Assembly (NCBI GenBank): GCA_016209865.1
Contig: JACQVL010000258.1
Location: forward strand, 1 to 49,727
Length of the DNA: 49,727 bases
Direction of reading: 5' to 3'
Origin: Candidatus Latescibacterota bacterium
GTDB lineage: Bacteria > JAAXHH01 > JACQVL01
Shown: positions 73-49,727 of the stretch, piece by piece
Numbering within the stretch: position 1 is the first letter of the stretch
How the letters are laid out: each line of letters starts with the position of its first letter
Position numbers and translations under genes: made by a program
The notes under the pieces: generated by a model
Seen by the model: the letters and a program-made list of their open reading frames with translations, nothing else
Told to the model about the DNA's origin: nothing
The model's database searches: none

Positions 73-188
73 GGGGTCAGAGGTCAGGATTCAGGGGTCA
101 GCAAGAGAAAAACCCGCCCTTTCTGTTCTACGTGTCTGTGAGGTATTTCCGAATCGTTTCTGACCCCTGACCCCTGATTCCTGATCCC
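73..188. repeat. Inverted pair of GGGGTCA heptamer arrays between the two tRNA-Lys genes
   Basis: Four heptamers (GGGGTCA, GAGGTCA, GGATTCA, GGGGTCA) run from 73 to 100. Four in the opposite sense (TGACCCC, TGACCCC, TGATTCC, TGATCCC) run from 161 to 188. The two arrays are reverse complements separated by about 60 bases, so a transcript of the spacer could fold into a long imperfect hairpin. No coding sequence is apparent in the gap. Confidence 0.85.
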
Positions 189-197
189 TGCCTTTCA

Positions 198-270
198 TGA
201 GGGCGGAAGGAGTCGAACCTTCGACCACCTGATTAAAAGTCAGGTGCTCTACCAACTGAGCTACGCCCCC
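198..270 (-). tRNA. tRNA-Lys (anticodon TTT)
   Basis: The minus strand gives a full cloverleaf of 73 nt. The acceptor GGGGGCG pairs with CGCCCTC, then TA and a D arm GCTC/GAGC follow. The anticodon stem CCTGA/TCAGG encloses CTTTTAA (anticodon TTT), and the T arm GAAGG-TTCGACT-CCTTC completes it. The discriminator is A and CCA is not encoded. A good promoter lies about 50 bases upstream. With the neighbouring CTT isoacceptor it covers both lysine codons. Confidence 0.96.
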
Positions 271-320
271 GCGGGCGATGGCATGTCACGTACACGGTCC
301 GCCCACCCGCGTAGCGTTAC

Positions 321-349
321 AAAATACACATCCGTCTCGTTTTCGTCAA
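321..349 (-). promoter_or_regulatory. sigma70-type promoter for the tRNA-Lys pair
   Basis: On the minus strand TTGACG (349-344) is followed by a 17-bp spacer and TATTTT (326-321). The 5' end of tRNA-Lys(TTT) lies about 50 bases downstream. Confidence 0.7.
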
Positions 350-392
350 CTAAAAAGATCGCACAACATCCTTTCGACTCACCGGCCACCGA

Positions 393-1670
393 TCAGACGA
401 AAATCGTCTCGTCCCGGCGCGACCCCACCGATACGATGGCGATGTCCGCCCCGGCCAGCTCGGCGATCCGTGACAAATATTCGCGGGCCCGCTGCGGCAG
501 GTCATCCCAGGTCCGCGCGTGGCGGGTCGGCTGGCCCCACCCTTCCATATCCTCGTAGATCGGCTCACACCGGGCCAAGAGGTTGGCATCGCTGGGCAGG
601 TGTTTCAGCGCCTTGTTCCCGTCGCGGTAGCCGACGCAGATTCGGAGGTGCGCCAGTTCATCAAGGGTATCCAGACGGGTGATGGCCAGGGTGCTGATGC
701 CGTTGACCCGGACGGCGTACTTGACGATCATCGCGTCGAACCAGCCGCATCGTCGGGGCCGGCCGGTCGTCGCCCCGAATTCGTTCGCCGCCCGCCGGAA
801 TTCGTCCCCCCATTTGGCCGGGAATTCCGTCGGGAACGGCCCGTTCCCGACCCGCGAGGTGTACGCCTTCACCACCCCGATGACCTCGTCGATCCTGGTC
901 GGCCCGACGCCCACCCCGGTACATGCCCCGCCCGACGTCGTGTTGGAGGAGGTCAGGTACGGGTACGTCCCGTGATCGACGTCGAGCAGCGTCCCCTGTC
1001 CGCCCTCGAACAGGACGTGCTTGCCCGCGTCGATCGCATCGTTGACGAGGACGGAGGTGTCGGTCACGAACGCGTCGATCTGCTTGTCGAATTCCAGGTA
1101 CTCCGCGATGATGCGGTCCGCATCGAGCGTCTCTTTGTGATAGACCGCTTCGAGGACTTTGTTGACTTCGCGGATGTTCCGGGTGAGCTTCGCGCAGAGC
1201 ACCTCGCGGTCGAGCAGGTCGACGATCCGAATGCCCCGCCGCGCGACTTTATCGACGTATGCCGGGCCGATCCCCCGTCCCGTCGTGCCGATCCGCTCCC
1301 CAGCCTCCAGGCCCTCCTCGCTCATCCGGTCGAGCAGCTTGTGGTACGGCATGATCAGGTGCGCGTTCTGGCTGATGAACAGCCGGCCGGTCACGTCGAT
1401 CCCTTTCGACCGGAGCATCGTGATCTCGTCCATCAACGCCGCCGGGTCGATGACCAGGCCGTTCCCGATCACGCAGACCTTCCCCGGCCGCAGGATGCCG
1501 CACGGGAGGAGGTGGAGGATGAACTCCTGATCGCCGACGAGCACGGTGTGACCGGCGTTCGCCCCGCCCTGGTATCGGACGACAACGTCCGCCTCCTCGC
1601 TCAGATAATCGACGATCTTCCCTTTGCCCTCATCCCCCCACTGGGCACCCACGACAACACGCACGGACAT
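393..1670 (-). CDS. purA: Adenylosuccinate synthetase
   Basis: This enzyme catalyses GTP-dependent condensation of IMP with aspartate to adenylosuccinate, the first committed step from IMP to AMP in the cytosol. The 425-residue protein has normal family length. The N-terminal P-loop-like motif GDEGKGK is at about residues 12-18, NAGHT is near 38-42, and the GVGPTRIDEVIGVVKAYTSR segment lies in the second half. The NGPFPTE and TGRPRRCGWFD motifs follow. The ATG start at 1670 is directly supported by the conserved N-terminus (VVVGAQWGDEGKGK). It is transcribed alone from a strong promoter at 1776-1748 and diverges from the gene at 1894. Confidence 0.98.
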   Translation of the reverse strand: MSVRVVVGAQWGDEGKGKIVDYLSEEADVVVRYQGGANAGHTVLVGDQEFILHLLPCGILRPGKVCVIGNGLVIDPAALMDEITMLRSKGIDVTGRLFISQNAHLIMPYHKLLDRMSEEGLEAGERIGTTGRGIGPAYVDKVARRGIRIVDLLDREVLCAKLTRNIREVNKVLEAVYHKETLDADRIIAEYLEFDKQIDAFVTDTSVLVNDAIDAGKHVLFEGGQGTLLDVDHGTYPYLTSSNTTSGGACTGVGVGPTRIDEVIGVVKAYTSRVGNGPFPTEFPAKWGDEFRRAANEFGATTGRPRRCGWFDAMIVKYAVRVNGISTLAITRLDTLDELAHLRICVGYRDGNKALKHLPSDANLLARCEPIYEDMEGWGQPTRHARTWDDLPQRAREYLSRIAELAGADIAIVSVGSRRDETIFV

Positions 1671-1689
1671 GAAGAACTCCTGGAGTTCA

Positions 1690-1731
1690 GTGAAGAGTGA
1701 AGAATTAAGAGTGAAGAGTGAAAAGATAAGA
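1690..1731. repeat. GTGAAGA heptamer array upstream of purA
   Basis: Six adjacent 7-base units follow one another: GTGAAGA, GTGAAGA, ATTAAGA, GTGAAGA, GTGAAAA, GATAAGA. They lie in the purA leader, between the promoter and the start codon, and so would be transcribed. Confidence 0.8.
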
Positions 1732-1747
1732 TGGCGGACCGCCTGAC

Positions 1748-1776: not shown

Positions 1777-1798
1777 GAGAAAAACCGGTGAAATCTTA

Positions 1799-1893: not shown

Positions 1894-4077
1894 ATGACTC
1901 CAACCCGCATGCTCCTCCTCGATTACGCGCTCGCCACGCCCGAGATCAACGAAGGCATCGCGTACTACTTCGTCCAGGCGGGCTGTCAGGTCGATTATCG
2001 CCAGTTTTATCCGAATCTCATTCGGGATGACCTCACGCAGTATTCCATGATCGCCCTGTTCGCCGGCCGGACGCCCGCGTTCCCCAGCGGGATGATGTCG
2101 GTGCATGAAGTGGCAGTCGCCGCCGAGTTCGTCCGCAACGGCGGACTGCTCATCCTCGGACCGAACTTGGACGGCGGCGAAGGGGCGAACGAACGCCACC
2201 TGTTCAACCACCTGCTCGCCGACCTCGACGTCTCCATCCGCGTCTGCAACGACCAGGTGGAAGATGACGTCAACGGGTACGCCGCCTCGCTGTGGAACCG
2301 GCCGTTCTACCGCCCGGCCGCCGGGCATCCGATCAACGTGAACGCCGCCGGTCGGCTTGCGTTCGAACGCTCCACTTCCCTCGTCGCCGGCCCGGACGTG
2401 AACGTGCTCCTCACCTCGTTCGAGACCGCCCGGCCGCGTGGCGTCGTCCCGGTCATCGCCTTAGCGCGAGCGGGCAACGGCTTCGTCCTCGTCGCGGGCC
2501 GGTACCTGCTGAACGCGACCGGCATCTCGCTCCGCATCTCAGGCGAGCCCCTCGTCCATCCAGAATGGCTCGCAGAGACGCAGGTGTTCTTGCAGAATCT
2601 GGCTGGTTATCTCATCAGCCTGGTGCGTGGGACTACGGAATGGGTGATGGTCAACCCGCTCCCGCCCGCTGCTGTCGGCCCTGTCGGGTTGCCTGATTTC
2701 GACCTCGACCGCGCCCCGGTCCTCGACCATCTCCCCGACGGCATCCACGTCGAGACGTTCCAATTGAGGAGTGCGGACCACCCCCCTGGATTGCAGAATG
2801 ACAATCCAAAATCCAAAATCCAAAATCCAAAATTTTTTGCTGCGCTTAATGCTCACGACCCCGACCGCGCCGCCCACTACGACCTGCTCCCCGACGAACG
2901 GCTGTACGGCTGGATCAGGCGGGACGGCGTCCGGGCAAGCTGGGGGAGCACGGTCGACTGGGGCGCGGTCTGGAAAAACCGGGCGGAAGTCGAACGCGTC
3001 ACCGACGCGCTCAAGGCGTGCGGGGTGAACCTGTTCTGGGGGATCGCCAACTGCCAGGCAGCCGGCGGGACGGGGTTCACCGAGGAAGAGAAGGCGGCCG
3101 TACGGCAGCAGTGGGAGTGGACGGCAGCCGCGCTCGACGGGTCATCCGTCAAATGGTATCCCACCTTAGACTACCGGTACTTCCGCGATGAACAGACCCG
3201 GTGTTACGGCGCGCAGGGACAGAAACTCGACGCGGCGTCCCCGATCGACCTCTCGATCTGGCGGCACTGCTGGTATGACCCGATGCGAGCGATCGCGGAA
3301 TTCTCCCTGACGCACCCGTGCATCGGCGGGATCGCCATGGACCTGGAGCTGTACGGCCACCCGCCCGCATACAATTATTACACGGGCTACGGGTTCGAGG
3401 ATGAGTGTTTCTTTACGGTGCTCGAACGATGGGAAGGATGGGTGGATGATGGACTGCTCCGATCGGCGGCTGGATTGCAACTGCTCCAGCGGTTCGACTG
3501 GCTCCGCACGCACGGACTGCTGGAGTCATACTTCACCGTCCTGAGCGCCGAAGTCGAGCGGATATGCCGGACGATCCGGGATGACGTCTGGCGGGTCAAC
3601 CCCGACCTGCTGTTCGCGTCGTACATCTTTACCACTCCCTGCAACTGGTTCGACCTGGGCGTCTACCGGGGGTTCAGCGCCCCGGAGCGCCCACTCATCC
3701 TGATGACGTTCAACATCCGGTCCGCCCGCATGGTCGAGCATCTGCGGGCACGGAGGGTGTACTGCTATCATGCTTCCGTCGCGCTGTTGGGGATGATCAG
3801 GCGGGAGGAATACGAAACGGTGTTCACGAACGCCATGCGGTACGGTCACGGGTACTGGATGAACAACATCAACGCCGTCGTCTATCCGAGCCCACAATCG
3901 GTCGAATCCCCGGCTCGTCAGGGAATGTCAACTGAGGAGGCGGTGGCAGCGATTCGAGAGGCAAATGACAAGATCGGAGGTCACTATGCGTTCATGCATC
4001 AACGGGGCGACAACGATGCCCTATTCGCTGGAAGAAGACCTGGCCGCCGCCGAGAAGGCCGGGTTCGAGGGGGTTGA
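1894..4077 (+). CDS. Uncharacterised 728-aa protein, possible glycoside-hydrolase-like
   Basis: I do not recognise the family with certainty. The N-terminal third (to about residue 250) reads like a Rossmann/GATase-like fold: LLLDYALATPEI at the start, then a GGLLILGPN strand-turn near residue 90. After a linker, the C-terminal two thirds (from about residue 340) is rich in W, Y, D and E. Stretches such as GIAMDLELYGH and WGIANCQ suggest a TIM-barrel carbohydrate-active enzyme. The linker is partly encoded by ATCCAAA heptamers in frame (NPKSKIQNPK). No signal peptide is seen. A TTG at 1876 could extend it, but ATG 1894 is preferred. It overlaps the downstream isomerase-like gene by 92 bases, and the last 30 or so residues are basic and unconserved-looking, so the true stop may be altered by a late frameshift. 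Confidence 0.7.
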   Translation: MTPTRMLLLDYALATPEINEGIAYYFVQAGCQVDYRQFYPNLIRDDLTQYSMIALFAGRTPAFPSGMMSVHEVAVAAEFVRNGGLLILGPNLDGGEGANERHLFNHLLADLDVSIRVCNDQVEDDVNGYAASLWNRPFYRPAAGHPINVNAAGRLAFERSTSLVAGPDVNVLLTSFETARPRGVVPVIALARAGNGFVLVAGRYLLNATGISLRISGEPLVHPEWLAETQVFLQNLAGYLISLVRGTTEWVMVNPLPPAAVGPVGLPDFDLDRAPVLDHLPDGIHVETFQLRSADHPPGLQNDNPKSKIQNPKFFAALNAHDPDRAAHYDLLPDERLYGWIRRDGVRASWGSTVDWGAVWKNRAEVERVTDALKACGVNLFWGIANCQAAGGTGFTEEEKAAVRQQWEWTAAALDGSSVKWYPTLDYRYFRDEQTRCYGAQGQKLDAASPIDLSIWRHCWYDPMRAIAEFSLTHPCIGGIAMDLELYGHPPAYNYYTGYGFEDECFFTVLERWEGWVDDGLLRSAAGLQLLQRFDWLRTHGLLESYFTVLSAEVERICRTIRDDVWRVNPDLLFASYIFTTPCNWFDLGVYRGFSAPERPLILMTFNIRSARMVEHLRARRVYCYHASVALLGMIRREEYETVFTNAMRYGHGYWMNNINAVVYPSPQSVESPARQGMSTEEAVAAIREANDKIGGHYAFMHQRGDNDALFAGRRPGRRREGRVRGG
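2804..2831. repeat. ATCCAAA heptamer array inside a coding region
   Basis: Four perfect ATCCAAA units are followed by a run of T. The reading frame of the 1894 gene passes through without a stop. Because 3 x 7 nt equals 7 codons, the array encodes a 7-residue period, NPKSKIQ. Confidence 0.95.
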
Positions 4078-4849: not shown

Positions 4850-6126
4850 GCCATTGCCCGTCGTGTCAACATCCACAACATCCCTGCTAACACGGCATAC
4901 GACAATACCGTCGCGTACGCCGCTCCCATCATCCCCAGCATCGGGATCATCAGGTAATTCCCCGCGATATTCACCCCCGCCGCGATGAGCGTGGCGACGG
5001 GCACAATCCCCGACCGTCCCCGTAGGTACACCCCCGCCATCACCCCTTCCGCGATCCCGCTCAGGATGTAGGCTAACATCACGGGCGGGATCACCCGCGC
5101 TCCGGCCCGGTACTCCACCCCGATGACCGGTCTGCCGAGGAGCCGCACGCTGACGATCTGCTCGCCGAACAGGACGAACGTCAGCCACAGCAGGCCCGCG
5201 ACCCCGGCGAAGGCGAGGATGGCGCTGGTCGTCACCGTCTGCGCGTCGTCACGCTTCGCCGTCTCCAGTACGAACGGCGCCCAGGCGTACTCGAACGCCT
5301 TGGCGAGGAGTCCCATCCCCATCGCGATCTTGTACCCCGCGCTGTACACGCCGACCGCCGCGAGACCCATCAGACGCTCTAAAATGACCCGGTCGATCAG
5401 GTCGATGGCGACCGTCGCCAGCCCGGCGACGACGAACGGCAGGCCGAACCGGAGCAGTCCGGCCGGGGCGAGCGGGCGATCCGTCACGCTCACGTACCGG
5501 CGAACGCTCATCGTCACGATCCCTGTGTTCAACGCAGAGGCGATCAGCATCGCCATGAAGATCGCTTCAACTCCGCGCCGTTCGATGAGAATCAGGTAGA
5601 CGGTCAGTCCGGCGTGGACGACCGTGTTGATGAACGTGCAGAAGACAAACCGGCCGGCCCGTCCTTCTGCTCTGAGGATGGTGTACGGCAGGAGCGTCAA
5701 CGTGTCGCAGACAAGAACGCCGGCCGCCAGTCGGATCAGACTTACATGATCTGTCAGTCCGACGAACGGCGCGATCGACTCCGCAGACGTGATGAGGATG
5801 GTGGAAAGGATGAGCGCCACGCCGACGAGCGTGAGCGTCGCCCCGCTGAACATCCGCCGCCGGTCCGCATCCTCATGGAGGGCGAAATACCGGAGGAACG
5901 CGGGACTGAATCCGAGCGCGTAGACGACATGCCCGAAGCCGAGCACGGTCAGCGTCAACGCGACCGCGCCGTACTCGGCGGGGGTAAACCGGTTGGTGTA
6001 GAGGGGGAGGAGGAGGAAATCGATCGTGCGGTTGAGGATGAGGCCGAGGCCGTAGATGGCGGAGTGACGGAGGAGACGATGCGTTGACGATTTTGGGTTT
6101 TGGATTTTGGATTTTGGGTTGTTCAT
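4846..6126 (-). CDS. Polysaccharide flippase-like membrane protein (Wzx/MOP superfamily)
   Basis: About 426 residues with around 12 hydrophobic segments, in keeping with oligosaccharide/O-antigen flippases that move lipid-linked glycans across the inner membrane. The first membrane region begins LLRHSAIYGLGLILNRTIDFLLLPLYTN, the classic start of this family (AxYGxG..xxx..F.L.P.YT). Later helices include VAIDLIDRVILERLMGLAAVGVYS near mid-protein. The start is ATG 6126; the residues after it (NNPKSKIQNPKSS) are encoded by a heptamer array, and no alternative start exists between the array and the conserved region, so the array must be translated. The gene lies at the end of the gcv block. No glycosyltransferase cluster is nearby, so the substrate is unknown. 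Confidence 0.88.
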   Translation of the reverse strand: MNNPKSKIQNPKSSTHRLLRHSAIYGLGLILNRTIDFLLLPLYTNRFTPAEYGAVALTLTVLGFGHVVYALGFSPAFLRYFALHEDADRRRMFSGATLTLVGVALILSTILITSAESIAPFVGLTDHVSLIRLAAGVLVCDTLTLLPYTILRAEGRAGRFVFCTFINTVVHAGLTVYLILIERRGVEAIFMAMLIASALNTGIVTMSVRRYVSVTDRPLAPAGLLRFGLPFVVAGLATVAIDLIDRVILERLMGLAAVGVYSAGYKIAMGMGLLAKAFEYAWAPFVLETAKRDDAQTVTTSAILAFAGVAGLLWLTFVLFGEQIVSVRLLGRPVIGVEYRAGARVIPPVMLAYILSGIAEGVMAGVYLRGRSGIVPVATLIAAGVNIAGNYLMIPMLGMMGAAYATVLSYAVLAGMLWMLTRRAMA

Positions 6127-6197
6127 GACATAGAGCATTCAGAGGCAGCGGACGAGCCGCCGATTCTTAATCCAAAATCTAAAATCCAAAATCTAAA
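6091..6197. repeat. Inverted pair of ATCCAAA-type heptamer arrays around the flippase start
   Basis: TTTTGGG, TTTTGGA, TTTTGGA, TTTTGGG at 6091-6118 face ATCCAAA, ATCTAAA, ATCCAAA, ATCTAAA at 6170-6197. The arrays are reverse complements about 50 bases apart. The left array encodes the flippase N-terminus and the right one contains the TAG stop codon of gcvPB (6195-6193). Confidence 0.9.
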
Positions 6198-7695
6198 ATG
6201 CTTTCCTGTACCGCACGTCCGGGTTGCGGGCCGCAGTCGTCTCGTCTAACCGGCTGACGGGTGTGGTGTGCGGCGCGTCCTTGACTTTCTCCGGTTCCGT
6301 CTCGATCTCGCGCGCGATCGTCAGCATCGCGTCGATGAAGCTGTCGAGCGACTCCTTGCTCTCCGTCTCCGTCGGCTCGATCATGATGGCTTCGGGCACG
6401 ATCAGCGGGAAATAGATCGTCGGCGCGTAGAACCCGAAATCGAGCAGCCGCTTGGCGATGTCGAGGGTTCGGACCCCGTTGTCCTTGAACCGGGTGCCGG
6501 ACGCGACGAACTCGTGCTGGCAGGGAATTTCGGCGGGCAACGGCACCTCGCGCGGATGGCCGGATTGCACGTCGTGTACGGTGAGCGTCCGGGGGTAGTG
6601 GTGTTCGAGCCGTCGCAGCAAGTAATTCGCGTTCAGGATGGCGTTCTCGCTGACCTGGCGCAGCCCGTCCGGGCCGTGCGTCCGGATGTAGGCGTACGCC
6701 CGCACCATCATGCCGAAGCTACAGTAGAAGCTCCGAACCCGGCCGATGGAATGGGGACGGTCGTAGTCGAACGCGTACCGGTCGCCATCTTTGCAGGCCA
6801 CCGGGATGGGGAGAAAATCGACGAGCGCGCCTCTCACGCCGACCGGACCGGCGCCAGGACCGCCGCCGCCGTGCGGGGTGGAGAACGTCTTGTGGAGGTT
6901 GAAGTGGACGACATCGAACCCCATATCTCCCGGCCGGGTGATGCCTAAGATGGCGTTGAAGTTCGCCCCGTCCATGTATAGGAGCGCCCCGGCGTCATGC
7001 ACGATCCGGGCGATCTCGCGGATGTCCGACTCAAACAGCCCCAGGGTATTGGGGTTGGTCAGCATGAACGCGGCCACCTCGTCGTCCATCACTGCCGCGA
7101 GCCGCTTCGTATCGACCAGGCCGCGTTCGTTCGTCTGAATCTGCACCGCCTCGTACCCGACTAAGGTGACGCTCGCCGGGTTCGTCCCGTGGGCGGAGTC
7201 GGGGATGATGACTTTCCGTCGTGGGCGGCCCTGCCGTTCGTGGTACGCCCGCATCATCATCAGGCCGGTCAACTCGCCGTGCGCCCCCGCCGCGGGCTGG
7301 AGGGTGACCGCGTCCATCCCGGCGATCTCGGCCAGGTACGCGCTCAACTCGTACAGCAACCGGATCGCCCCCTGGCAGGTGCTGTCCGGTTGGAGCGGGT
7401 GGACCCGGGCGAATCCGGGCAAGGCGGCCACATCCTCGTTCAGCCTGGGGTTGTGTTTCATCGTGCAGGAGCCTAACGGGTACATCGCCCGGTCGGGATG
7501 GTAGTTCAGCGACGACAGCCGGGTGAAGTGGCGGACGACGTCCACTTCGCTCACCTCGGGCAATTCTGGGGGAGCATTCCGCAGAGCCTCAGCCGGGAGG
7601 AGCGATTCGATCGGCTTGACGGGCACGTCGGGGTTCGGCATGGAATAGCCTCGCCGGCCGGGGGAACTCAATTCGAAGATGAGAGGCTCGGGCAC
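6193..7695 (-). CDS. gcvPB: Glycine dehydrogenase (decarboxylating) subunit 2, P-protein beta
   Basis: This is the C-terminal half of the split glycine cleavage P-protein. It holds the PLP cofactor that decarboxylates glycine and passes the aminomethyl group to lipoyl-GcvH. The 500-residue length fits the subunit. The PLP lysine lies in [17 protein letters not shown] near residue 270; [12 protein letters not shown] is near 75 and DGANFNAI near 245. The GTG start at 7695 has AAGGA seven bases upstream. It is the last gcv gene in the operon, separated from gcvPA by a 118-aa gene of unknown function. The stop TAG falls in a heptamer array. Confidence 0.97.
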
Positions 7696-9954: not shown

Positions 9955-9974
9955 ACAGGCTCCCTTGAAAAGAC

Positions 9975-10133
9975 AGTGGTCGGTGGCCAGTGGTCGGTTA
10001 AATCTGGATTCCCGCTTGCGCGGGAATGACAGTCACGGGCGTCCGCACAAGGCCGTCCCTACTCGTCACTCGTCACTGGTCACTCGTCACTGATTGTTAC
10101 CGACCGCCGACTACCGACAACTGACTACCGACT
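9975..10133. repeat. Composite repeat: CCGACCA and ACTCGTC heptamers around an ATTCCCGC palindrome
   Basis: Units AGTGGTC, GGTGGCC, AGTGGTC (9975-9995) are inverse to CCGACCG, CCGACTA, CCGACAA, CTGACTA (10100-10127). Between them lie a perfect 8-bp palindrome ATTCCCGC/GCGGGAAT with a 4-nt loop (10008-10027), a half element ending CGTCCCTAC, and four ACTCGTC units (10061-10088). The right end is translated as the C-terminus of AccC. Confidence 0.88.
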
Positions 10134-11968: not shown

Positions 11969-11992
11969 GGTCCCGCTCCTTACTCAATTGCG

Positions 11993-12037
11993 GATTGCGG
12001 ATTTGACTTCCAGACCTTCAATCCGAAATCCGCAATC
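11993..12037. repeat. ATTGCGG/AATCCGC heptamers forming a 12-bp hairpin
   Basis: GATTGCGGATTT (11993-12004) is a perfect reverse complement of AAATCCGCAATC (12026-12037), with a 21-base loop. Both arms are made of heptamers (ATTGCGG x2; AATCCGA, AATCCGC). It occupies the efp-accB gap. There is no T run on the minus strand, so it is not a classic terminator; a processing or stability hairpin is possible. Confidence 0.85.
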
Positions 12038-12041
12038 GATC

Positions 12042-14248: not shown

Positions 14249-14262
14249 GGTCACCTCATTTC

Positions 14263-14313
14263 GGTGGTCGGTGGTCGGTGAATCAGATTTCGGATTTCAG
14301 GTTGTGGATTGTG
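14263..14313. repeat. GGTGGTC and ATTTCGG heptamer arrays
   Basis: GGTGGTC, GGTGGTC, GGTGAAT at 14263-14283 are followed by ATTTCGG, ATTTCAG, GTTGTGG, ATTGTGG at 14286-14313. They are between the tRNA-His gene and the TPR gene start. Confidence 0.75.
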
Positions 14314-18032: not shown

Positions 18033-18050
18033 ACACCACTCCAATCGTTA

Positions 18051-18078
18051 CCGACCACTGACTACTGACCACCGACTC
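18051..18078. repeat. CCGACCA heptamer array
   Basis: CCGACCA, CTGACTA, CTGACCA, CCGACTC in the gap between rseP and the TPR gene. Confidence 0.82.
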
Positions 18079-18083
18079 CTGTC

Positions 18084-22290: not shown

Positions 22291-22309
22291 GCTCGACAAC
22301 CCCTTATAG

Positions 22310-22369
22310 ATTCCCGCTTCCACGGGAATGACAAGATGTTACCGACTACCGACCACCGACCACCGACCA
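22310..22369. repeat. ATTCCCG palindrome plus CCGACCA heptamer array
   Basis: ATTCCCG/CGGGAAT with a 6-nt loop at 22310-22329 is followed by CCGACTA and three CCGACCA units at 22342-22369. A seventh-base phase continues as CCGTCAA, whose TCA is the frr stop (TGA, minus strand). It fills the gap between frr and uppS. Confidence 0.85.
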
Positions 22370-22372
22370 CCG

Positions 22373-23660
<1,288 letters not shown>

Positions 23661-35451: not shown

Positions 35452-35542
35452 GGGAGAAAAAATCAGGGTGAGATCAGGGACGAGTGACGAGTAAAAACAA
35501 AACCCTCTCGCTGGTGTTGTGGCTGAGAGCTGGCTGGTCATG

Positions 35543-35571: not shown

Positions 35572-35572
35572 G

Positions 35573-35606: not shown

Positions 35607-35644
35607 CATCGGTACAGCGAAGTCAGCGCGGAGAGTGATTGTAA

Positions 35645-35665
35645 CCGACCACTGACCACCGACCA
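35645..35665. repeat. CCGACCA heptamer array
   Basis: CCGACCA, CTGACCA, CCGACCA, then CCGCTTT, immediately 3' of the groEL stop codon and before its terminator. Confidence 0.8.
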
Positions 35666-35670
35666 CCGCT

Positions 35671-39156: not shown

Positions 39157-39159
39157 ACA

Positions 39160-39209
39160 GTGACGAGTGAAGAGTGAGAAAATCCAAAATCCAAAATCTA
39201 AAATCCAAA
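39160..39209. repeat. GTGACGA and ATCCAAA heptamer arrays side by side
   Basis: GTGACGA, GTGAAGA, GTGAGAA (39160-39180) then ATCCAAA, ATCCAAA, ATCTAAA, ATCCAAA (39182-39209). Two heptamer families are joined without a spacer in the birA-nadC gap. Confidence 0.88.
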
Positions 39210-39223
39210 ATCAAATACCCACC

Positions 39224-40108
39224 TCACCCCGTCATCTCCAGACTGATGTCCAGGGCGGGGGCGGAATGGGTGAGCGCCCCGATGGAGATCAAGTCGACCC
39301 CGGTCTCCGCGACCGCGCGGACGCGGTCGAGGGTGAGCGCTCCGGAGGCTTCCAGCTCGATCGGGCGGCCGGGCGCGGTCATCCGGCGGACGAGGGCGAC
39401 GGCCGCGCGCATGGCGTCGAGCGACATGTTATCGAGCATGATGCGATCGACCATCAGCCGGGCCGCCTCTTCCACCTGGGTCAGCGTTTCCGTTTCGACT
39501 TCGATCTTGAGCATGCTGCTCTGGGCGTGCATCCGTTCGCGGCATCGTTCGACCGCCGGGGTGATCCCGCCCGCGGCCGCGATATGGTTATCCTTGATGA
39601 GGACCATGTCAAACAGTCCGAGCCGGTGGTTCATCCCGCCGCCCATCCGGACCGCATACTTTTCGAGCTGTCGCAGTCCCGGTATAGTCTTCCGGGTATC
39701 GGTAATCTGCGCCGGGGTGCCGGCCACCGCCGACACGTACCGGGCGGTCAGGGTAGCGATCCCGGAGAGATGCTGGAGGAAGTTGAGGGCGGTGCGTTCC
39801 CCCGTTAATATCCCGCCCACCGGGCCAGAGATGTCCGCGAACCGCTGCCCTGGCTCGACGCGGTCGCCATCCTGGATCGACACCCGGAGTTGGAGCCGGG
39901 GGTCGATGCGTTGGAAGACCAGACGGACGACCTCAAGCCCGGCGATGACTCCCGGCCGCTTCGCCATCAACCGGCCGGTCGCGCGGACATCGGCGGGTAC
40001 GGTCCACGTGGTCGTGACGTCCCCGGCGCCGAGATCTTCGGCCAGGGCGCGGTCGATCAGGGAGAGGAGGTCTGGGGCGTCGAATAGCCCTTTCTCGTCA
40101 CTCGTCAC
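39224..40108 (-). CDS. nadC: Nicotinate-nucleotide pyrophosphorylase (carboxylating)
   Basis: It forms nicotinate mononucleotide from quinolinate and PRPP. 294 residues. ALAEDLGAGDVTT near the start, ERTALNFLQHLSGIATLT near 105-122, ITDTRKTIPGLRQLEKYAVRMGGGMNHRLGLFDMVLIKDNHI near 135-175 and VETETL near 205 are signatures. The only usable start is GTG 40108, which is itself part of a GTGACGA heptamer array, so the first residues (TSDEKG) are repeat-encoded. nadA and nadB are not in the window. Confidence 0.96.
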   Translation of the reverse strand: MTSDEKGLFDAPDLLSLIDRALAEDLGAGDVTTTWTVPADVRATGRLMAKRPGVIAGLEVVRLVFQRIDPRLQLRVSIQDGDRVEPGQRFADISGPVGGILTGERTALNFLQHLSGIATLTARYVSAVAGTPAQITDTRKTIPGLRQLEKYAVRMGGGMNHRLGLFDMVLIKDNHIAAAGGITPAVERCRERMHAQSSMLKIEVETETLTQVEEAARLMVDRIMLDNMSLDAMRAAVALVRRMTAPGRPIELEASGALTLDRVRAVAETGVDLISIGALTHSAPALDISLEMTG

Positions 40109-40121
40109 TCGTCACTCGTCA
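40094..40121. repeat. CTCGTCA (GTGACGA) heptamer array at the PHP-nadC junction
   Basis: Four perfect CTCGTCA units. On the minus strand the array supplies both the TGA stop of the PHP-domain gene (40121-40119) and the GTG start of nadC (40108-40106). Confidence 0.92.
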
Positions 40122-41141
40122 CTTGATATACATCGGGTTCGAGTACAGCCAGGGACGGCCGTCGAGCCGTGCTTCCACACGGTAGACCCCGGGCGTGGTC
40201 ACGGAGACGGCGCGGGTCTGGCCGGTGGCCTGGTCATAGAGCGCGCCGTCGCGAACGACCCGGATTTCCGCTGCGGTCGGCAGGACGACCTGAAGGTCGA
40301 CAGGCGGGACGAACCGGAGGTCGTCCCCCATCATCCGCTCCTCGCCGTCGGCGTTGCGACCGCAGAAGGCGAACCCCTTCCCGTGATGCAGCGGTTCATA
40401 GCTGAGGTAACAATGCCCTGCGCGGAGCGCGCTGTAGAGCGACGCGAGGGCCGTCTTCGGGTCTCCCGTCAACGAGGTATCGGTGATGATGTACGTCAGT
40501 AACGTCTCGAAGAGCTGACGGTACGGGAACACCACCAGAAGTCCGGCCGGGAGCTTCTTGGCATGGACATCCAGTCCGCCGATCGCGGTCACTTTGCGCT
40601 GTTGCGTGAGCTGATCCCATGCAGCCACCGTTTCGGGGAATGGCCCCTGGATCCACGCATCCGGGTTGGCATGGCGGAAGAGCAAGTTGTAGTACCGGAC
40701 ATCTCTGATCCAGTCGAACATGTACGACCAGAGCTCGATGCCCGTGAACGGCGCGTCCCAGGCCCGCCAGAAGTACGATTTCTGGCGGAAGAGCACCCGA
40801 TACCGCCCGTGAGGATGGACGACGATGCTCACCCCTCTCTGGGCGTCGATGTCCTCGACGATCCGGCGCGTCGACTGCCGGCCGTTGACGCGTCGAGGCA
40901 GGCCGAGCGACAGGCAGTGCTCACGAGAATACGACACCTCCTCGCCGACAGCAACGAGCAGACTGTCATGCCAGCCTTCATAGCCCTTTTCCCGTGCGCG
41001 CAAGGTATTATGATCAGTCATCACCAAATAATCGAGTCCTGCTTCCCGCCCTGCTGTAATGATCTCCTCTAAGGTGCCCTCTCCGTCCGAGTAAATCGAG
41101 TGGATGTGAATGGCACCCCGGTACCAGTACGATGTCTCGAT
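40119..41141 (-). CDS. PHP-domain protein, probable ATC start
   Basis: About 340 residues. A PHP metallohydrolase-like domain is visible: AIHIHSIYSDGEGTLEEII (H-x-H) near residue 11, LDYLVMTDHNTL near 37, then VVHPHGRY and GGLDVHAKKLP, which supply the remaining metal ligands. A C-terminal beta-domain follows. The domain begins upstream of the nearest ATG/TTG candidates: the H-x-H motif is only in frame if translation starts by 41141. There GGAGG (41152-41148) stands six bases before ATC, with no ATG, GTG or TTG in frame nearby. A non-canonical AUC start or a small sequence error is implied. The substrate is unknown; it lies after the epimerase. Confidence 0.82.
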   Translation of the reverse strand: METSYWYRGAIHIHSIYSDGEGTLEEIITAGREAGLDYLVMTDHNTLRAREKGYEGWHDSLLVAVGEEVSYSREHCLSLGLPRRVNGRQSTRRIVEDIDAQRGVSIVVHPHGRYRVLFRQKSYFWRAWDAPFTGIELWSYMFDWIRDVRYYNLLFRHANPDAWIQGPFPETVAAWDQLTQQRKVTAIGGLDVHAKKLPAGLLVVFPYRQLFETLLTYIITDTSLTGDPKTALASLYSALRAGHCYLSYEPLHHGKGFAFCGRNADGEERMMGDDLRFVPPVDLQVVLPTAAEIRVVRDGALYDQATGQTRAVSVTTPGVYRVEARLDGRPWLYSNPMYIK

Positions 41142-42148: not shown

Positions 42149-42166
42149 GGGAGGACTCCTTTTGTC

Positions 42167-42280
42167 GGGATTAGGGGTTCGGGAAAGACCATACAGACGA
42201 GAATGGAGCCATTCCTTAGTGCTGTTATGTTCTTCCTTCTTTTCTTCCGAACCCCGAACCCCCAATCCCGAACCCCGGGT
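42167..42280. repeat. Inverted pair of CCGAACC heptamer arrays
   Basis: GGGATTA, GGGGTTC, GGGAAAG (42167-42187) face CCGAACC, CCGAACC, CCCAATC, CCGAACC (42247-42274), about 60 bases apart. It fills the gap between the propeller gene and the epimerase. Confidence 0.85.
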
Positions 42281-42284
42281 TTTT

Positions 42285-43910: not shown

Positions 43911-45466
43911 CCGCGCTCCACGTCGACCATCGCCCTGGGCAGCCAGTCGATCAGGTCGCCGGCGATCAGGCACGGCCGGCCCAGGGCGGCGGCGGCCAGG
44001 TCACCCGCCCGTCCCTGCAGATAAACGCCCAGCATCGCGGCGTCGAACGGACGGAGTCCCTGTGCCATCAGCCCGACGATCGCCCCCGTCAGCACATCCC
44101 CCGACCCGGCCGTCGCCATCCCCGGGTTGCCCGTCGGGTTGATCGACACCCGTCCCGTCGGGTCGGCCACGACCGTCCCCGCGCCCTTGAGGACGACCGT
44201 CACGCCGAGCGTCCGGGCGGTCTGGCGGGCGATGCCGGCCCGATCCGCCTGAATCTCCCCGGCAGGACGGCCGATCAGGCGGGACAGCTCTCCGGCATGG
44301 GGGGTGATGACCGCGTCCGACGCACGGGACGCCAGCAACTCAGACCGTCCGGTGAACGCGTTCAGTCCGTCCGCGTCGATCACCATCGGCCGGGGCGACC
44401 GGGCGACGACCCGACGGACGAGTTCCGACGTCTCCTCGTGCCGGGACAGGCCGGGACCGATGGCCAGGACATTACCCCAGGCGAGCAATTCGTCGATCCC
44501 GTGTTGCGCGTCGAGACTCAACGTCCGCGCCGGCGTCTCCGGGAGCGGCCGGGTCATCACTTCTGTCAGCTTTGCCGCCATCACGTCCGCCAGACTCTCC
44601 GGCGTGCCTAACATCGCCATGCCCGCCCCGATGCGCAGCGCCGCCTGGCAGGCCATTCCCGCCGCGCCGGTGAGGCCGACCGACCCGGCGACGACGACCA
44701 CTCGCCCGCGGTCGCCCTTGTGCGCGTTCGGCGCAGGCCGGGGGAGGAGCCAAGCCATCTCGTCCGGCGTCGGAAGGGACAACCACAGGCTCTCGGCAGC
44801 GACAGCCTCGGCCGGGAGTCCGATGTCGGCGACTTCGACCTCGCCCGCCCACGCTTTGCCGGGGTAGACCGCCACATCCAGTTTCATCAGGCCGATCGTG
44901 ACCGTCCGGTCCGCCCGGACGCACGGCCAGCGGTCACGGCTGACCGCGTCCGGCGTCGGCACGTCAGCGGTCAGGCCGGACGGGACATCAACGGAGAGGA
45001 CCGGGGCGTTCGAGCGGTTGATGACCGCGATCCCCGCCGCGGCCAGACCGTGCGCCGGGCCTTTCAGCCCGGTGCCTAAGATCGCGTCGATGATCAAATC
45101 CGCGTGCAACCGCTCCCCGAGTTGCCCCGGTTCCGTGATTTCGACGATGGGCACGGCCGCTGCGTCCGCCCGGTCGAGTTGTGCGCGGGCATCCCCGGTG
45201 ACCGCCGGCCGGTCGCTCAGCAGCAGGCAGTGTACGCGGGCCCCGTCCATCGCTAACAGACGCCCGGCCACGAACCCGTCCCCACCGTTGTTCCCCTTCC
45301 CGCAGACGATCTCGACCCGCCGGCCGTCCGTTCCCCCTAACATCCGCGCCGCTGCCCGCGCGACCACCCGTCCGGCCCGTTCCATCAGGGTCAGACCCGG
45401 AATCCCGTACTGGTCGATCGCGCGCTGGTCGATCGCGCGCATCTGGTCAGCGGTGCAAATGAACAT
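43907..45466 (-). CDS. nnr: Bifunctional NAD(P)H-hydrate epimerase / ADP-dependent dehydratase
   Basis: 519 residues. It repairs hydrated NAD(P)H. The N-terminal NnrE domain (about 1-215) has MRAIDQRAIDQYGIPGLTLMERAG and the VCGKGNNGGDGFVAGRLL motif. The C-terminal NnrD domain (about 225-515) has AHKGDRGRVVVVAGSVGLTGAA, VITPHAGELSRL and the ribokinase-like INPTGNPGMATAGSGDVLTGAIVGL motif with the catalytic Asp. ATG 45466; preceded by a GTGACGA array, so it is probably led by the upstream CPBP/acpS operon. Confidence 0.96.
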   Translation of the reverse strand: MFICTADQMRAIDQRAIDQYGIPGLTLMERAGRVVARAAARMLGGTDGRRVEIVCGKGNNGGDGFVAGRLLAMDGARVHCLLLSDRPAVTGDARAQLDRADAAAVPIVEITEPGQLGERLHADLIIDAILGTGLKGPAHGLAAAGIAVINRSNAPVLSVDVPSGLTADVPTPDAVSRDRWPCVRADRTVTIGLMKLDVAVYPGKAWAGEVEVADIGLPAEAVAAESLWLSLPTPDEMAWLLPRPAPNAHKGDRGRVVVVAGSVGLTGAAGMACQAALRIGAGMAMLGTPESLADVMAAKLTEVMTRPLPETPARTLSLDAQHGIDELLAWGNVLAIGPGLSRHEETSELVRRVVARSPRPMVIDADGLNAFTGRSELLASRASDAVITPHAGELSRLIGRPAGEIQADRAGIARQTARTLGVTVVLKGAGTVVADPTGRVSINPTGNPGMATAGSGDVLTGAIVGLMAQGLRPFDAAMLGVYLQGRAGDLAAAALGRPCLIAGDLIDWLPRAMVDVERG

Positions 45467-45475
45467 AGGAAAGCA

Positions 45476-45503
45476 GTGACGAGTGACAAGTGACGAGTGA
45501 CAA
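45476..45503. repeat. GTGACGA heptamer array
   Basis: GTGACGA, GTGACAA, GTGACGA, GTGACAA between nnr and the CPBP gene. Confidence 0.85.
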
Positions 45504-45508
45504 GGGTA

Positions 45509-46790: not shown

Positions 46791-48154
46791 GCCTCCCTCT
46801 CCATGCCGGTCAGCCACTCGCGGACCGCGGCGAACGCGTCCTCTCTGGATTGAATATGGCCGAGCGCCTCGCGCTCCTCGAGACGCGACAGGAGCGTCCC
46901 GACCCGCGGACCGGGAGACAGGTGGAAGGTAGCCATCAAGTCGTCCCCGGTCACCAGACGCGGACTCGCCCGGAGCATCCGGCGCCGGGCATCGAGCCGG
47001 AGCAGCCGATCCAGCAGCGAACGGCAGAACGCCTGATCGATGTCCATGATGCGGCTCTGCGCGAACGCAAGCAGCGCCACTCCTATCGTCTCCTCCCCGG
47101 CTTCGCGGGTAATCGCGTACAACGCTTCATCCCGGCCGGCTGTCTGGTGCCGGAGGCAGAGCACCGTGGCGGGAAGCCGGACGAGCCGCACTAACCCCTG
47201 CCGTTCATGCGTGCTCAGCCGCAGTCGCTCGGTGGCGATGCGCTCCGTCCAGGCATCCGTTCGTGACTGATCCGGGTCGTCACCGATGAGCAGAGCGGCC
47301 AGCCGGACCAACCAGCTTCGCCGGCGATCGTCCGTGATCGGACGGTCGAGATATTGAGGGAGCGCCTCTCGGAGCGCCTCGACCGGGATCCGGTCGGGTG
47401 CCGCAAGGAACGCATCGATCTGCTGAAAGAGATGGAAGGAAGGGCGCGTAGATGTCCTGGTCTCCACCAGCTCAGGAAGAGCGGCCTGAAGGACGCCCGC
47501 TGTGTACATCCGCTCCACCCAGGACGTCGTGTGAGGCTCCATCAGCAGCAGCGCCAGTTCGTCCCGGATGCGCTCGACAGAGACGGTCGGGAGCAGCGCC
47601 GCGTGCTGACGGAGCCACTGGTTCGTGGTCGGGTCAATGTCGAGTCTGAGCTGAGCTGCAAACCGGAACGCCCGGAGCACCCGGAGCGGGTCCTGGACGA
47701 ACGCCTGTTCCGAGACGGCCATGAGCCGCTGTCGCTGCAGGTCACGCATGCCGTGGAATGGGTCGATGAGCGTCATCGTCCCGTCGAGCACGTCGATCAG
47801 CCGGCAGGCGACCGCGTTGATCGTAAAATCCCGTTGCGCCAGGTCCTCTTCGATCGTCGCGCCCTTCATCGGAGCGAAGTCGAACGTCAGCGTCCGCCGG
47901 ACGACGACCCGCCCGACCCCTTCGTCCGGGTCGAGCAGGACGAATGCCCCGCGGACTGCGCGGGCGAACGCCCGGGCTGCCAGGAGCGCGTCGCCGGTCA
48001 CGACCAGGTCGACATCGGACACGGGCTGGCCGAGCAGCGCGTCCCGGATGCAGCCGCCGACGAGAAACACACCATCCGGGGCCGGCTCACAGAGACCTCG
48101 CAGCGCCGGGATGAAGCGCGAATTGGAGTGGAGGAGCGTGGTTATAGAGATCAT
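46787..48154 (-). CDS. CCA-adding / poly(A) polymerase-type tRNA nucleotidyltransferase
   Basis: 455 residues, class II nucleotidyltransferase. The G-G and D-x-D motifs are in FLVGGCIRDALLGQPVSDVDLVVTG near residues 30-55; RRTLTFDFAPMKGATIEEDLAQRDFTINAVACRL near 100-135 carries the RDFTxNA motif, and FVQDPLRVLRAFRFAAQLR near 165 and SVERIRDELALLL near 205 complete the core. The three tRNA genes here lack an encoded CCA, so a CCA-adding role is likely; poly(A) polymerase cannot be excluded. ATG 48154 is the start; an open upstream frame is repeat-derived. Confidence 0.9.
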   Translation of the reverse strand: MISITTLLHSNSRFIPALRGLCEPAPDGVFLVGGCIRDALLGQPVSDVDLVVTGDALLAARAFARAVRGAFVLLDPDEGVGRVVVRRTLTFDFAPMKGATIEEDLAQRDFTINAVACRLIDVLDGTMTLIDPFHGMRDLQRQRLMAVSEQAFVQDPLRVLRAFRFAAQLRLDIDPTTNQWLRQHAALLPTVSVERIRDELALLLMEPHTTSWVERMYTAGVLQAALPELVETRTSTRPSFHLFQQIDAFLAAPDRIPVEALREALPQYLDRPITDDRRRSWLVRLAALLIGDDPDQSRTDAWTERIATERLRLSTHERQGLVRLVRLPATVLCLRHQTAGRDEALYAITREAGEETIGVALLAFAQSRIMDIDQAFCRSLLDRLLRLDARRRMLRASPRLVTGDDLMATFHLSPGPRVGTLLSRLEEREALGHIQSREDAFAAVREWLTGMEREA

Positions 48155-48182
48155 GACTCTCTCACGAATCGGTTCTCTCTTG

Positions 48183-48230
48183 TCATTCCCGCGCAAGCCT
48201 GTCCTCGCGCAAACGGGGACGGAAATCCAC
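48183..48230. repeat. Degenerate ATTCCCGC-type palindrome upstream of cca
   Basis: CATTCCCGCGCAAGC and a diverged partner GCGCAAACGGGGACGGAAAT lie in the cca leader. A copy of the family seen at 10008 and 22310. Confidence 0.55.
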
Positions 48231-48245
48231 ATCGAGCCGTGATTC

Positions 48246-48274
48246 AACGTACGGACGGGGTGACAGACTGTCAA
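48246..48274 (-). promoter_or_regulatory. Possible promoter for the cca-acpS operon
   Basis: TTGACA (48274-48269), 17-bp spacer, TACGTT (48251-48246). The -10 box is poor. Confidence 0.45.
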
Positions 48275-48286
48275 GCGAAATCCATG

Positions 48287-48315
48287 TTGACAGTAGGGCG
48301 AACATGTGGTTAATT
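48287..48315 (+). promoter_or_regulatory. sigma70-type promoter for hisH
   Basis: TTGACA (48287-48292), 17-bp spacer, TTAATT (48310-48315), about 50 bases before the hisH ATG. It is divergent from the cca promoter, with the two -35 boxes 12 bp apart. Confidence 0.65.
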
Positions 48316-48363
48316 ACAGCAGTTTTAGAGATGAATCTGCGTTGTGCTTGATGGGAGGGACGT

Positions 48364-48972
48364 ATGGTCACGATCGTCGATTACGGGATGGGCAACCTGC
48401 GGAGTGTGCAGAAGGCGTTCGAGCGGGTCGGCGTCGAGGCGGAGGTTCAGCGTGACCCGAAGGCGGTGACGCGGGCGTCGAAGCTCGTCTTGCCGGGGGT
48501 GGGGGCGTTCGGGATGGCGATGGCCCATATCGATGAATTGCAGTTGCGCGAACCACTGCTCGAGGCCGTCCATGCGGGGACGCCGCTCTTAGGCATCTGT
48601 CTGGGACTGCAGCTTCTGTTCGAGTCGAGCGAGGAGCTGGGACGTTTTGAAGGACTTGGCCTGCTGACTGGGGCGGTGAAGCGGTTCCCTGAGAACGGTC
48701 TGCGAGTCCCGCACATCGGCTGGAACGAGGTGCACCGGGTGTTCGATCATCCCATCCTCGACGGCGTGCCGGACCGGGAGTTTTTCTACTTCGACCATTC
48801 GTACTATGTCGTGCCGTCGGATGATGGAGTGACCGCCGGACTTACCGACTACGGCATCGACTTCCCGGCGGTGGTTGCCAGGGAGAAGGTGTGGGGGATT
48901 CAGTTCCACCCGGAGAAGTCGCAGACGTTCGGCCTGCAGATCCTGCGGAATTTTGGAGCACTCCGGTGTTGA
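48364..48972 (+). CDS. hisH: Imidazole glycerol phosphate synthase, glutaminase subunit
   Basis: 202 residues. A class I glutamine amidotransferase that feeds ammonia to HisF in histidine synthesis. MVTIVDYGMGNLRSVQKAFERVG at the start, the nucleophile cysteine in PLLGICLGLQLLFESSEE near 80, PHIGWNEVH near 118, FDHSYYV near 142 and the His-Glu pair in WGIQFHPEKSQ near 180 are diagnostic. ATG 48364 follows GGAGGGACGT. It overlaps hisA. hisF would be expected beyond the window. Confidence 0.98.
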   Translation: MVTIVDYGMGNLRSVQKAFERVGVEAEVQRDPKAVTRASKLVLPGVGAFGMAMAHIDELQLREPLLEAVHAGTPLLGICLGLQLLFESSEELGRFEGLGLLTGAVKRFPENGLRVPHIGWNEVHRVFDHPILDGVPDREFFYFDHSYYVVPSDDGVTAGLTDYGIDFPAVVAREKVWGIQFHPEKSQTFGLQILRNFGALRC

Positions 48973-49727
48973 TCCTTCCGGCGATCGACCTGCGGGGCGG
49001 ACGGTGTGTCCGGCTGGTGCAGGGTCGGAAAGAGCAGGAAACTGTTTACGACGATGATCCCGTGCACGCAGCCTGTCGCTGGGCAGACCAGGGCGCGTCG
49101 TTTCTTCACGTCGTGGATCTGGATGGGGCATTTACTGGCGGATCGCAGAACTTAGACGTCGTGGAGCGGATTCTCCGCACGGTTCCTGTTCCAATCCAGT
49201 TAGGCGGAGGCATCCGTTCGTTAGATGCGATCGAGCGGGTCTTGGCATCAGGGGTCGCACGGGTCATCATCGGAACAGCAGCCGTGACCGACCCCGGCCT
49301 GGTCGCTGCGGCGATCGACCGCTGGGGGGCCGGCCGCGTCGTCGTGGGCATCGACGCGCGGGACGGGCAGGTCGCCGTCCGCGGGTGGGAGGAGGGAGCG
49401 CCGCTCTCCGCGATCGAGGCGGCGCGCCGGGTCAAGAGGATGGGTGTCGAGCGGGTCGTCTACACCGACATCGTCCGTGACGGGATGCTGACCGGGCCGA
49501 ACGTCGAAGCGACCCGGCGATTGGCGGTCGAGAGTGGCCTCCGGGTCATCGCGTCCGGCGGCGTGTCGTCGATGGACGACCTGAGCCGTTTAGCCGCGTT
49601 GGGCGACGACGGCATCGAGGGTGTCATCATCGGAAAAGCCCTGTACGAGGGCACGATCGATTTGAAAGAGGCGATTGAACGGTTCGGGGAGAAGCAGGGG
49701 TCAGGGGTCAGGGGTCAGGGGTCAGGA
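48966..49727 (+). CDS. hisA: ProFAR isomerase, runs off the window
   Basis: 1-(5-phosphoribosyl)-5-[(5-phosphoribosylamino)methylideneamino]imidazole-4-carboxamide isomerase, 254 codons visible without a stop. LILPAIDLRGGRCVRLVQG holds the catalytic base D8. IQLGGGIRS near 76, VVVGIDARDG near 127 with the catalytic acid Asp and YTDIVRDGMLTGPN near 168 are typical, as are IASGGVSS and EGVIIGKALYEGTI. GTG 48966 gives the family start M-L-I-L-P-A-I-D. The normal C-terminus (EAIERFGEK) runs on in frame into a GGGGTCA array. Confidence 0.96.
   Translation, partial: MLILPAIDLRGGRCVRLVQGRKEQETVYDDDPVHAACRWADQGASFLHVVDLDGAFTGGSQNLDVVERILRTVPVPIQLGGGIRSLDAIERVLASGVARVIIGTAAVTDPGLVAAAIDRWGAGRVVVGIDARDGQVAVRGWEEGAPLSAIEAARRVKRMGVERVVYTDIVRDGMLTGPNVEATRRLAVESGLRVIASGGVSSMDDLSRLAALGDDGIEGVIIGKALYEGTIDLKEAIERFGEKQGSGVRGQGSG
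49697..49727. repeat. GGGGTCA heptamer array at the window end
   Basis: Four perfect GGGGTCA units, read by hisA in frame as G-S-G-V-R-G-Q without a stop before the window edge. The same unit occurs between the two tRNA-Lys genes at the other end of the window. Confidence 0.9.

What the first reader, a model, noticed from the sequence alone, without database searches (positions are those of the whole stretch)
73..49727. Intergenic DNA built from several families of heptanucleotide arrays
Seen directly: many gaps hold 3-6 tandem 7-base units. Families are GGGGTCA (73, 161, 49697), ATCCAAA (2804, 6091, 6170, 39182), GTGAAGA/GTGACGA (1690, 10061, 39160, 40094, 45476), CCGACCA (9975, 10100, 14263, 18051, 22342, 35645), CCGAACC (42167, 42247) and ATTGCGG (11987, 12020, 14286). 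The unit sequence differs between families but the 7-base length does not. Similar short tandem heptamers (STRR) are known in filamentous cyanobacteria. A constant unit length with several unrelated sequences suggests one mechanism, such as templated slippage or a dedicated enzyme.
Basis: partly seen in the sequence, partly recalled or inferred. Interest (0 to 1): 0.8.

Follow-up and report, generated by a model that had tools for sequence, protein, structure and literature searches.

The report
Heptamer arrays capping gene ends
Many gaps between genes in this uncultured bacterium are lined by short arrays of 7-base repeats, usually about 31 bases long and often present as a mirrored pair with one copy against each neighbouring gene; this is a known but unexplained class of bacterial repeat, and its strict orientation relative to genes turns out to hold for dozens of repeat sequences in several phyla.

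Summary
In 337 kb of this genome, period 7 gives 100 exact tandem matches where neighbouring non-codon periods give 2-5. Arrays are about 31 nt (4 units plus 3) and abut coding ends: median 3 nt after stop codons, 17 nt before starts. The G-richer strand reads away from the gene in 107 of 117 cases. Gaps with both polarities always run G-array...C-array (44/44), of one family in 40/44 (chance about 12): inverted caps on an intergenic gap, with unrelated cores. The rule holds in cyanobacteria (49 unit classes, 62:4) and an acidobacterium (65:15), also for units without GG, so G-quadruplexes, the published idea, cannot be the general cause. In same-order relatives the efp-accB gap is 10-46 nt without arrays; here it is 73 nt with a hairpin. 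Between close cyanobacteria 57/60 arrays keep their place and 13/20 length changes are multiples of 7. No reverse transcriptase or Y1 transposase was found in this 83%-complete genome. I file it with the known STRR/heptamer-repeat class: seeded in short gaps by an unknown copying process, then evolving in 7-nt steps. What enforces the orientation is open.

The parts
70..104 (+). G-polar arm, GGGGTCA family, 8 nt after a tRNA gene end
   Evidence: inverted pair with 157-191; tRNAs
157..191 (-). C-polar arm, CTGACCC family, 6 nt before tRNA-Lys
1689..1731 (+). single G-polar array AGTGAAG, 19 nt upstream of the purA start (1670, - strand), reading away from the gene
2803..2833 (-). AATCCAA array inside the ORF 1909-4077 (DNPKSKIQNPKF)
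6089..6120 (+). G-polar arm GATTTTG, partner of 6169-6199
   Evidence: RNA fold of the pair -47.4 kcal/mol on the + strand
6169..6199 (-). C-polar arm AATCCAA; its variant AATCTAA supplies the TAG stop of the gene 6193-7695 (- strand)
9974..9998 (+). G-polar arm GGTGGTC, partner of 10098-10133
10061..10091 (-). C-polar array ACTCGTC, inner layer, joined by linker GATTGTT to the next array
10098..10133 (-). C-polar array ACCGACC at the 3' end of accC
11984..12003 (+). G-polar arm ATTGCGG in the efp-accB gap
   Evidence: gap 73 nt here, 10-46 nt in 14 relatives
12020..12039 (-). C-polar arm AATCCGC in the efp-accB gap
14261..14280 (+). G-polar array TCGGTGG just outside the gene end at 14254
18049..18081 (-). 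C-polar array ACCGACC at the 3' end of the M50 peptidase gene (gap 90 nt here, median 22 in relatives)
22340..22372 (-). C-polar array ACCGACC directly against the gene end at 22373
35477..35492 (+). short G-polar array GACGAGT
35644..35668 (-). C-polar array ACCGACC 2 nt from the chaperonin gene end (35671)
39159..39177 (+). G-polar array AGTGACG/AGTGAAG, birA side
39179..39215 (-). C-polar array AATCCAA, nadC side
40094..40123 (-). C-polar array ACTCGTC between two gene ends
42165..42183 (+). G-polar arm TCGGGATTAGGGGTTCGGG
42247..42277 (-). C-polar arm CCGAACC
45475..45504 (+). G-polar array AGTGACG/AGTGACA just outside the gene end at 45466
49695..49727 (+). array CAGGGGT running to the end of the contig

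Best explanation
These are heptanucleotide repeats of the STRR / long-simple-sequence-repeat class, arranged as caps on intergenic gaps. Shown: each array is about 31 nt, lies against a coding end with its G-richer strand pointing away from the gene, and a gap that has both polarities nearly always has the same unit family inverted at its two sides around an unrelated core. Shown in relatives: arrays sit in gaps that are array-free, and in the clearest cases shorter, in sister lineages, so they were added; in close cyanobacteria they keep their place while changing by point substitution and by whole 7-nt units. Inferred: new arms are copied into short operon gaps from other arrays of the genome by an unidentified process (a genome has its own arm consensus, and the two arms of a pair are no more alike than arms of different pairs); survivors are those that spare the stop codon and the ribosome-binding site; length then drifts by replication slippage or unequal recombination in 7-nt steps. 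Most likely effect, inferred only: a stem-loop in DNA or transcript between one gene's stop and the next gene's ribosome-binding site that spaces or insulates the two cistrons, rather than a protein-coding or phase-variation role.
For: Period-7 enrichment. Polarity 107:10 and distances. 44/44 pairs in G..C order, 40/44 same family against a permutation mean of 12.5 (maximum 21 in 2000); arrays flanking the same gene match no more than chance, 5/15 against 4.6. No such skew in array-free gaps (-0.03, -0.00) against +0.37/-0.23 in array gaps. Arm consensus AATCCAAAATCCAAAATCTAAAATCCAAAATC in both arms. Empty sites: efp-accB 73 nt here, 10-46 nt (mostly 22) in 14 relatives; no array of these families in roughly 400 kb of syntenic DNA of relatives. 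Cross-phylum rule: acidobacterium with 34 same-family G..C pairs, many of them hairpins with loops of 1-40 nt; four data sets together. 57/60 arrays conserved in place and 13/20 length changes multiples of 7 in close cyanobacteria. Cores unrelated. Arms within a pair not more alike than between pairs.
Against: The seeding process is not identified: no reverse transcriptase, Y1 transposase or Ku in this genome. Slippage does not by itself explain why unrelated units share length and polarity, nor identical AATCCAA arrays in about ten phyla. No compensatory change between arms and no wobble asymmetry between 5' and 3' arms (25% and 27% variant units), so a selected RNA stem is not demonstrated. 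Only six array-holding gaps could be compared with relatives and two of these are not longer here. Function rests on position only.
Confidence: 0.5

Rival explanations
1. Pure polymerase slippage: the replicative polymerase contacts about 7 nt and duplicates 7-mers (hypothesis of Mrazek et al. 2007, as cited in PMC4679880 and PMC4692102); selection removes arrays from genes.
For: Period 7 stands out in every array-rich genome sampled; orthologous arrays change in 7-nt steps and exchange unit types.
Against: Does not predict the same unit at both ends of a gap in inverted orientation (40/44), the polarity, the sharp 31-nt length, or one arm consensus per genome. Same-order relatives have none of these arrays in syntenic DNA.
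Confidence: 0.2
2. A mobile hairpin family of REPIN type: two inverted arms plus a loop, moved by a transposase acting in trans on single-stranded DNA.
For: Inverted arms with conserved sequence and variable core, many copies per genome, insertion into short gaps, composite arrays with conserved order and linker at about six loci, occurrence in viral contigs.
Against: No Y1_Tnp in this genome; cores unrelated and of 21-152 nt, whereas REPIN ends lie at a fixed distance (PMC3116915); many single arrays; arms of a pair are not co-inherited in detail; 49 unit classes in cyanobacteria obey one polarity.
Confidence: 0.2
3. G-quadruplex elements: four G-tracts explain the four-unit length, as proposed for GGGAATC arrays in Xanthomonas (PMC4692102).
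For: The same four-unit mode, inverted pairs and orientation were reported there; several families here have G-tracts (GGGGTCA, CGGGGTT).
Against: Arrays whose G-strand has no GG (AGTGACG, GATGAAC and others) obey the same rule: 81 away to 11 toward, summed over the four data sets; their length is the same (AGTGACG median 30 nt).
Confidence: 0.05
4. Bidirectional Rho-dependent insulators: transcripts entering a gene from either side read a C-rich, G-poor array and would be terminated there.
For: The orientation fits, and Rho is encoded here and in G044 and G060.
Against: Five array-rich cyanobacteria have no Rho_RNA_bind match, yet cyanobacteria follow the same rule.
Confidence: 0.05

Closest known systems
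GGGAATC heptamer repeats of Xanthomonas and GGGGA(C/T)T of Nostoc PCC 7120 (Rehm et al. 2015, PMC4692102)
   Same: Four-unit mode, inverted pairs, G-rich strand on the non-coding strand close upstream of ORFs and on the coding strand right after stop codons (some overlapping the stop), rare between divergent genes, mostly conserved in place between related species.
   Different: One G-tract unit type there, explained by G-quadruplexes; here many unit types including some without GG, same-family pairing shown against permutation, 31-nt arms, several phyla, empty sites in relatives.
STRR heptamers of filamentous cyanobacteria (Mazel et al. 1990; from my own knowledge, Calothrix heptamers cited in PMC4692102)
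   Same: Tandem heptamers of several unit types, intergenic, multicopy; the identical AATCCAA array occurs in many cyanobacteria.
   Different: This genome belongs to another lineage; arms here are shorter and more uniform than in cyanobacteria (2 of 123 longer than 45 nt, against 44 of 147).
TAACTGA direct repeats of Beggiatoaceae, Cyanobacteria and Bacteroidetes (MacGregor 2015, PMC4679880)
   Same: Intergenic heptamers mostly in one orientation just upstream of start codons, patchy distribution over phyla, 7-nt indels between strains.
   Different: One unit studied; inverted pairs reported as almost absent (169 direct sets, one indirect).
REPINs / REP doublets (Bertels and Rainey 2011, PMC3116915)
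   Same: Inverted conserved arms around a less conserved spacer, extragenic, hairpin-forming, many copies.
   Different: Arms there are conserved 16-nt words at fixed distance, tied to a RAYT; here heptamer arrays, cores of any sequence and length, no Y1 transposase found.

Membership tests
STRR / heptanucleotide LSSR class | Tandem 7-nt units enriched far above other periods | tested here: met
STRR / heptanucleotide LSSR class | Mostly intergenic, multicopy, several unit types | tested here: met
   158 arrays in 337 kb, at least seven families; 8-15 inside or overlapping ORFs by two definitions
STRR / heptanucleotide LSSR class | Copy number changes in whole units between relatives | tested here: inconclusive
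   Shown in cyanobacteria; no close relative of this genome is held, only a paralogous gap pair (L021, arms of 24 and 31 nt)
G-quadruplex GGGAATC-type repeats | Four or more G-tracts of three or more G per array | tested here: not met
   Main families GGATTTT and AGTGACG have at most GG; the rule is the same with and without GG
REPIN / RAYT | Inverted doublets of a conserved word | tested here: met
   (40/44 same family, all in G..C order)
REPIN / RAYT | Fixed arm distance and related spacers | tested here: not met
   Cores 21-152 nt and unrelated
REPIN / RAYT | A Y1 (RAYT) transposase in the genome | tested here: not met
   No PF01797 match in G000, which is 83% complete
MITE | Homologous internal sequence between terminal inverted repeats | tested here: not met
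   8 of 42 cores resemble another core, through the dRS3-like repeat where inspected
MITE | Target-site duplication | not tested
   No strain-level empty site was available at nucleotide resolution

The most novel reading that the evidence does not exclude
An unrecognised, widely shared system writes heptamer caps of about 31 nt onto DNA next to gene ends, always with the G-rich strand running out of the gene, using unit sequences that recur in distant phyla.
Probability: 0.15. Interest if true: 0.9.

Novelty: new member of a known kind. Interest (0 to 1): 0.58.

Why it matters
Heptamer repeats have been known in cyanobacteria since 1990 without an accepted origin or function. The data give a compact rule (about 31 nt, flush with coding ends, G-strand outward, same unit inverted at both ends of a gap) that holds for dozens of unit sequences in several phyla. 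That removes the G-quadruplex and Rho explanations as general causes and turns the origin question into a testable one: what process adds 31-nt arms in this orientation.

Tried and rejected
Dedicated reverse transcriptase: no RVT_1 match in G000. RAYT: no Y1_Tnp. Ku-dependent joining of extended ends: Ku only in G060 of 12 genomes. G-quadruplex: rule independent of GG. Rho: absent in five cyanobacteria tested. Background composition: no skew in array-free gaps of this genome, only slight in relatives. MITE with a conserved core: cores unrelated. Gene cassettes flanked by arrays: families at the two ends of one gene match only by chance. Arm-to-arm copying or base-pair compensation: own arms not more alike than foreign arms, no wobble asymmetry. 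Rfam: only tRNAs in the window. The host organism could not be named: the genome scan may leave out its own records.
Full report
What is there. The window is contig C223 of a 3.75 Mb, 356-contig, 83%-complete genome. I read a further 20 stretches of the same genome; together with the window that is 337 kb. All 20 were picked from the hit list of the ATCCAAA pattern, so the density of that family is biased upward. Exact period-7 runs number 100 against 2-5 for periods 4, 5, 8, 10, 11 and 13. A tolerant search gives 158 arrays; the commonest units are AAAATCC (52), ACGAGTG (25), ACCACCG (15), AACCCCG (11), ACCCCTG (11) and AAGGACG (9). Array length is narrow: 93 of 123 are 25-35 nt and 2 exceed 45 nt; medians of the larger families are 27-33 nt, mostly 30-31. 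Four units plus three bases is 31 nt.

Architecture. With genes called by a codon-usage script of my own, 107 of 117 intergenic arrays have the G-richer strand reading away from the nearer gene. The median distance is about 3 nt after a stop codon and 17 nt before a start codon. Among gaps that hold both polarities, all 44 run G-array then C-array, and 40 carry the same family at both ends, against 12.5 expected by permutation. Arrays at the two ends of one gene match only by chance. Pairs occur between co-directional (41 of 153 gaps of 30 nt or more) and convergent genes (3 of 13), and none between divergent genes (0 of 13). Array-free gaps show no such skew. The unit is therefore the gap, lined by inverted arms. 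The cores between arms are unrelated apart from a dRS3-like palindrome. Both arms of the AATCCAA family share the consensus AATCCAAAATCCAAAATCTAAAATCCAAAATC, yet arms of one pair are no more alike than arms of different pairs. Some gaps hold layers of different arrays in a fixed order with T-rich linkers, for example ACTCGTC array, GNTTTTT, ACCGACC array.

Were they added? The region from efp to nadC is syntenic in the order. The efp-accB gap is 73 nt here with an AATCCGC hairpin, and 10-46 nt, mostly 22, in 14 relatives. The gap next to the M50 peptidase gene is 90 against 22 nt. Over six gaps with arrays the median is 81.5 nt here and 54 nt in relatives; over 16 gaps without arrays it is 41 and 44.5. 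None of these families was found in the syntenic DNA of the relatives. Six gaps are few, and two of the six are not longer here. The clean case is efp-accB.

Elsewhere. The reversed, non-complemented control pattern is absent from all 20 genomes counted. Two hits (a Moraniibacteriota and a Bathycorpusculum contig) lie at ends of short contigs and may be assembly or binning errors. In an acidobacterium many pairs form compact hairpins with loops of 1-40 nt set between a stop codon and the next gene. Counting arrays within 40 nt of a gene, G-strand away against toward is 62:4 in cyanobacterial stretches with 49 unit classes, 84:4 here, 65:15 in the acidobacterium and 72:11 in the 80 named loci; for units without GG alone the sums are 81:11.

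Evolution. A Dolichospermum mnmE gene carries an in-frame AATCCAA array; nine orthologues, among them Nostoc, Desmonostoc, Rivularia and Plectonema, keep a period-7 stretch of about the same length with partly diverged units, while others lack it. Between cyanobacteria at 89-94% identity, 57 of 60 arrays with mapped flanks are present in both; 13 of 20 length changes are multiples of 7 (2.9 expected); AATCYAA arrays rarely change length (11 of 14 unchanged), other units often do (17 of 22 changed). The comparisons share species and are not all independent.

Mechanism. Shown: growth and loss by 7-nt steps, in cyanobacteria. Shown: addition to short gaps in this lineage, best at one site. Not shown: the agent. 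No reverse transcriptase or Y1 transposase is found here, and Ku is absent from all but one of 12 genomes; the genome is incomplete, so absence is not proof. G-quadruplexes (PMC4692102) cannot be general, because units without GG behave alike. Rho is missing from five array-rich cyanobacteria. I favour copying of arms from other arrays of the genome into operon gaps, followed by slippage, with survival where stop codon and ribosome-binding site are spared. Whether the stem-loop has a role is open: the arms can pair strongly (for example -47 kcal/mol for 6089-6199), but variation shows no compensation.

Known or new. The class is known: cyanobacterial STRRs, TAACTGA repeats (PMC4679880) and GGGAATC repeats of Xanthomonas, where the same orientation and four-unit mode were reported for one G-rich unit (PMC4692102). 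This genome is a new member. What goes beyond the literature I could search is the generality of the rule over unit sequences and phyla, the same-family pairing, and the exclusion of two general explanations.

Noticed in passing
window 10004-10030 and about 22295-22325; several cores in L009-L028: A dispersed palindrome GGATTCCCGC...GCGGGAATGAC, resembling Neisseria dRS3 from memory, often lies between heptamer arms.
   Followed up: partly
L206, L208, L211 (acidobacterium) and L028 4109-4236: Other families flank a longer palindrome (CGTCATCCTGAGGCGCGAAGACGCCGAAGG...; CATGCTGAGCG...CTCAGGGTGACA), so arrays line further repeat elements.
   Followed up: no
L021 185-285 and 1103-1215: Two similar intergenic cores with the same arms, one arm 24 nt and its counterpart 31 nt: a one-unit difference between paralogous gaps.
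   Followed up: partly
window 6193-6195: The array variant AATCTAA supplies the stop codon (TAG) of the gene 6193-7695; several arrays elsewhere do the same.
   Followed up: no
L044-L055 (Lindowbacteria, G044): Single AATCCAA arrays of about 32 nt lie inside many genes, including what looks like pheS (L048), giving NPKSKIQNPKSKI inserts.
   Followed up: partly
L170-L200: 31 stretches of viral contigs hold AATCYAA arrays.
   Followed up: no
window 45402-45444: A 15-bp tandem repeat CTGGTCGATCGCGCG inside the start of the YjeF/Carb_kinase gene.
   Followed up: no
L275 (Anabaena catenula mnmE): The mnmE loop that holds the heptamer array in other Nostocales holds a different insertion (GTAGAGACG...GTCTCTAC), so the loop tolerates several repeats.
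   Followed up: no
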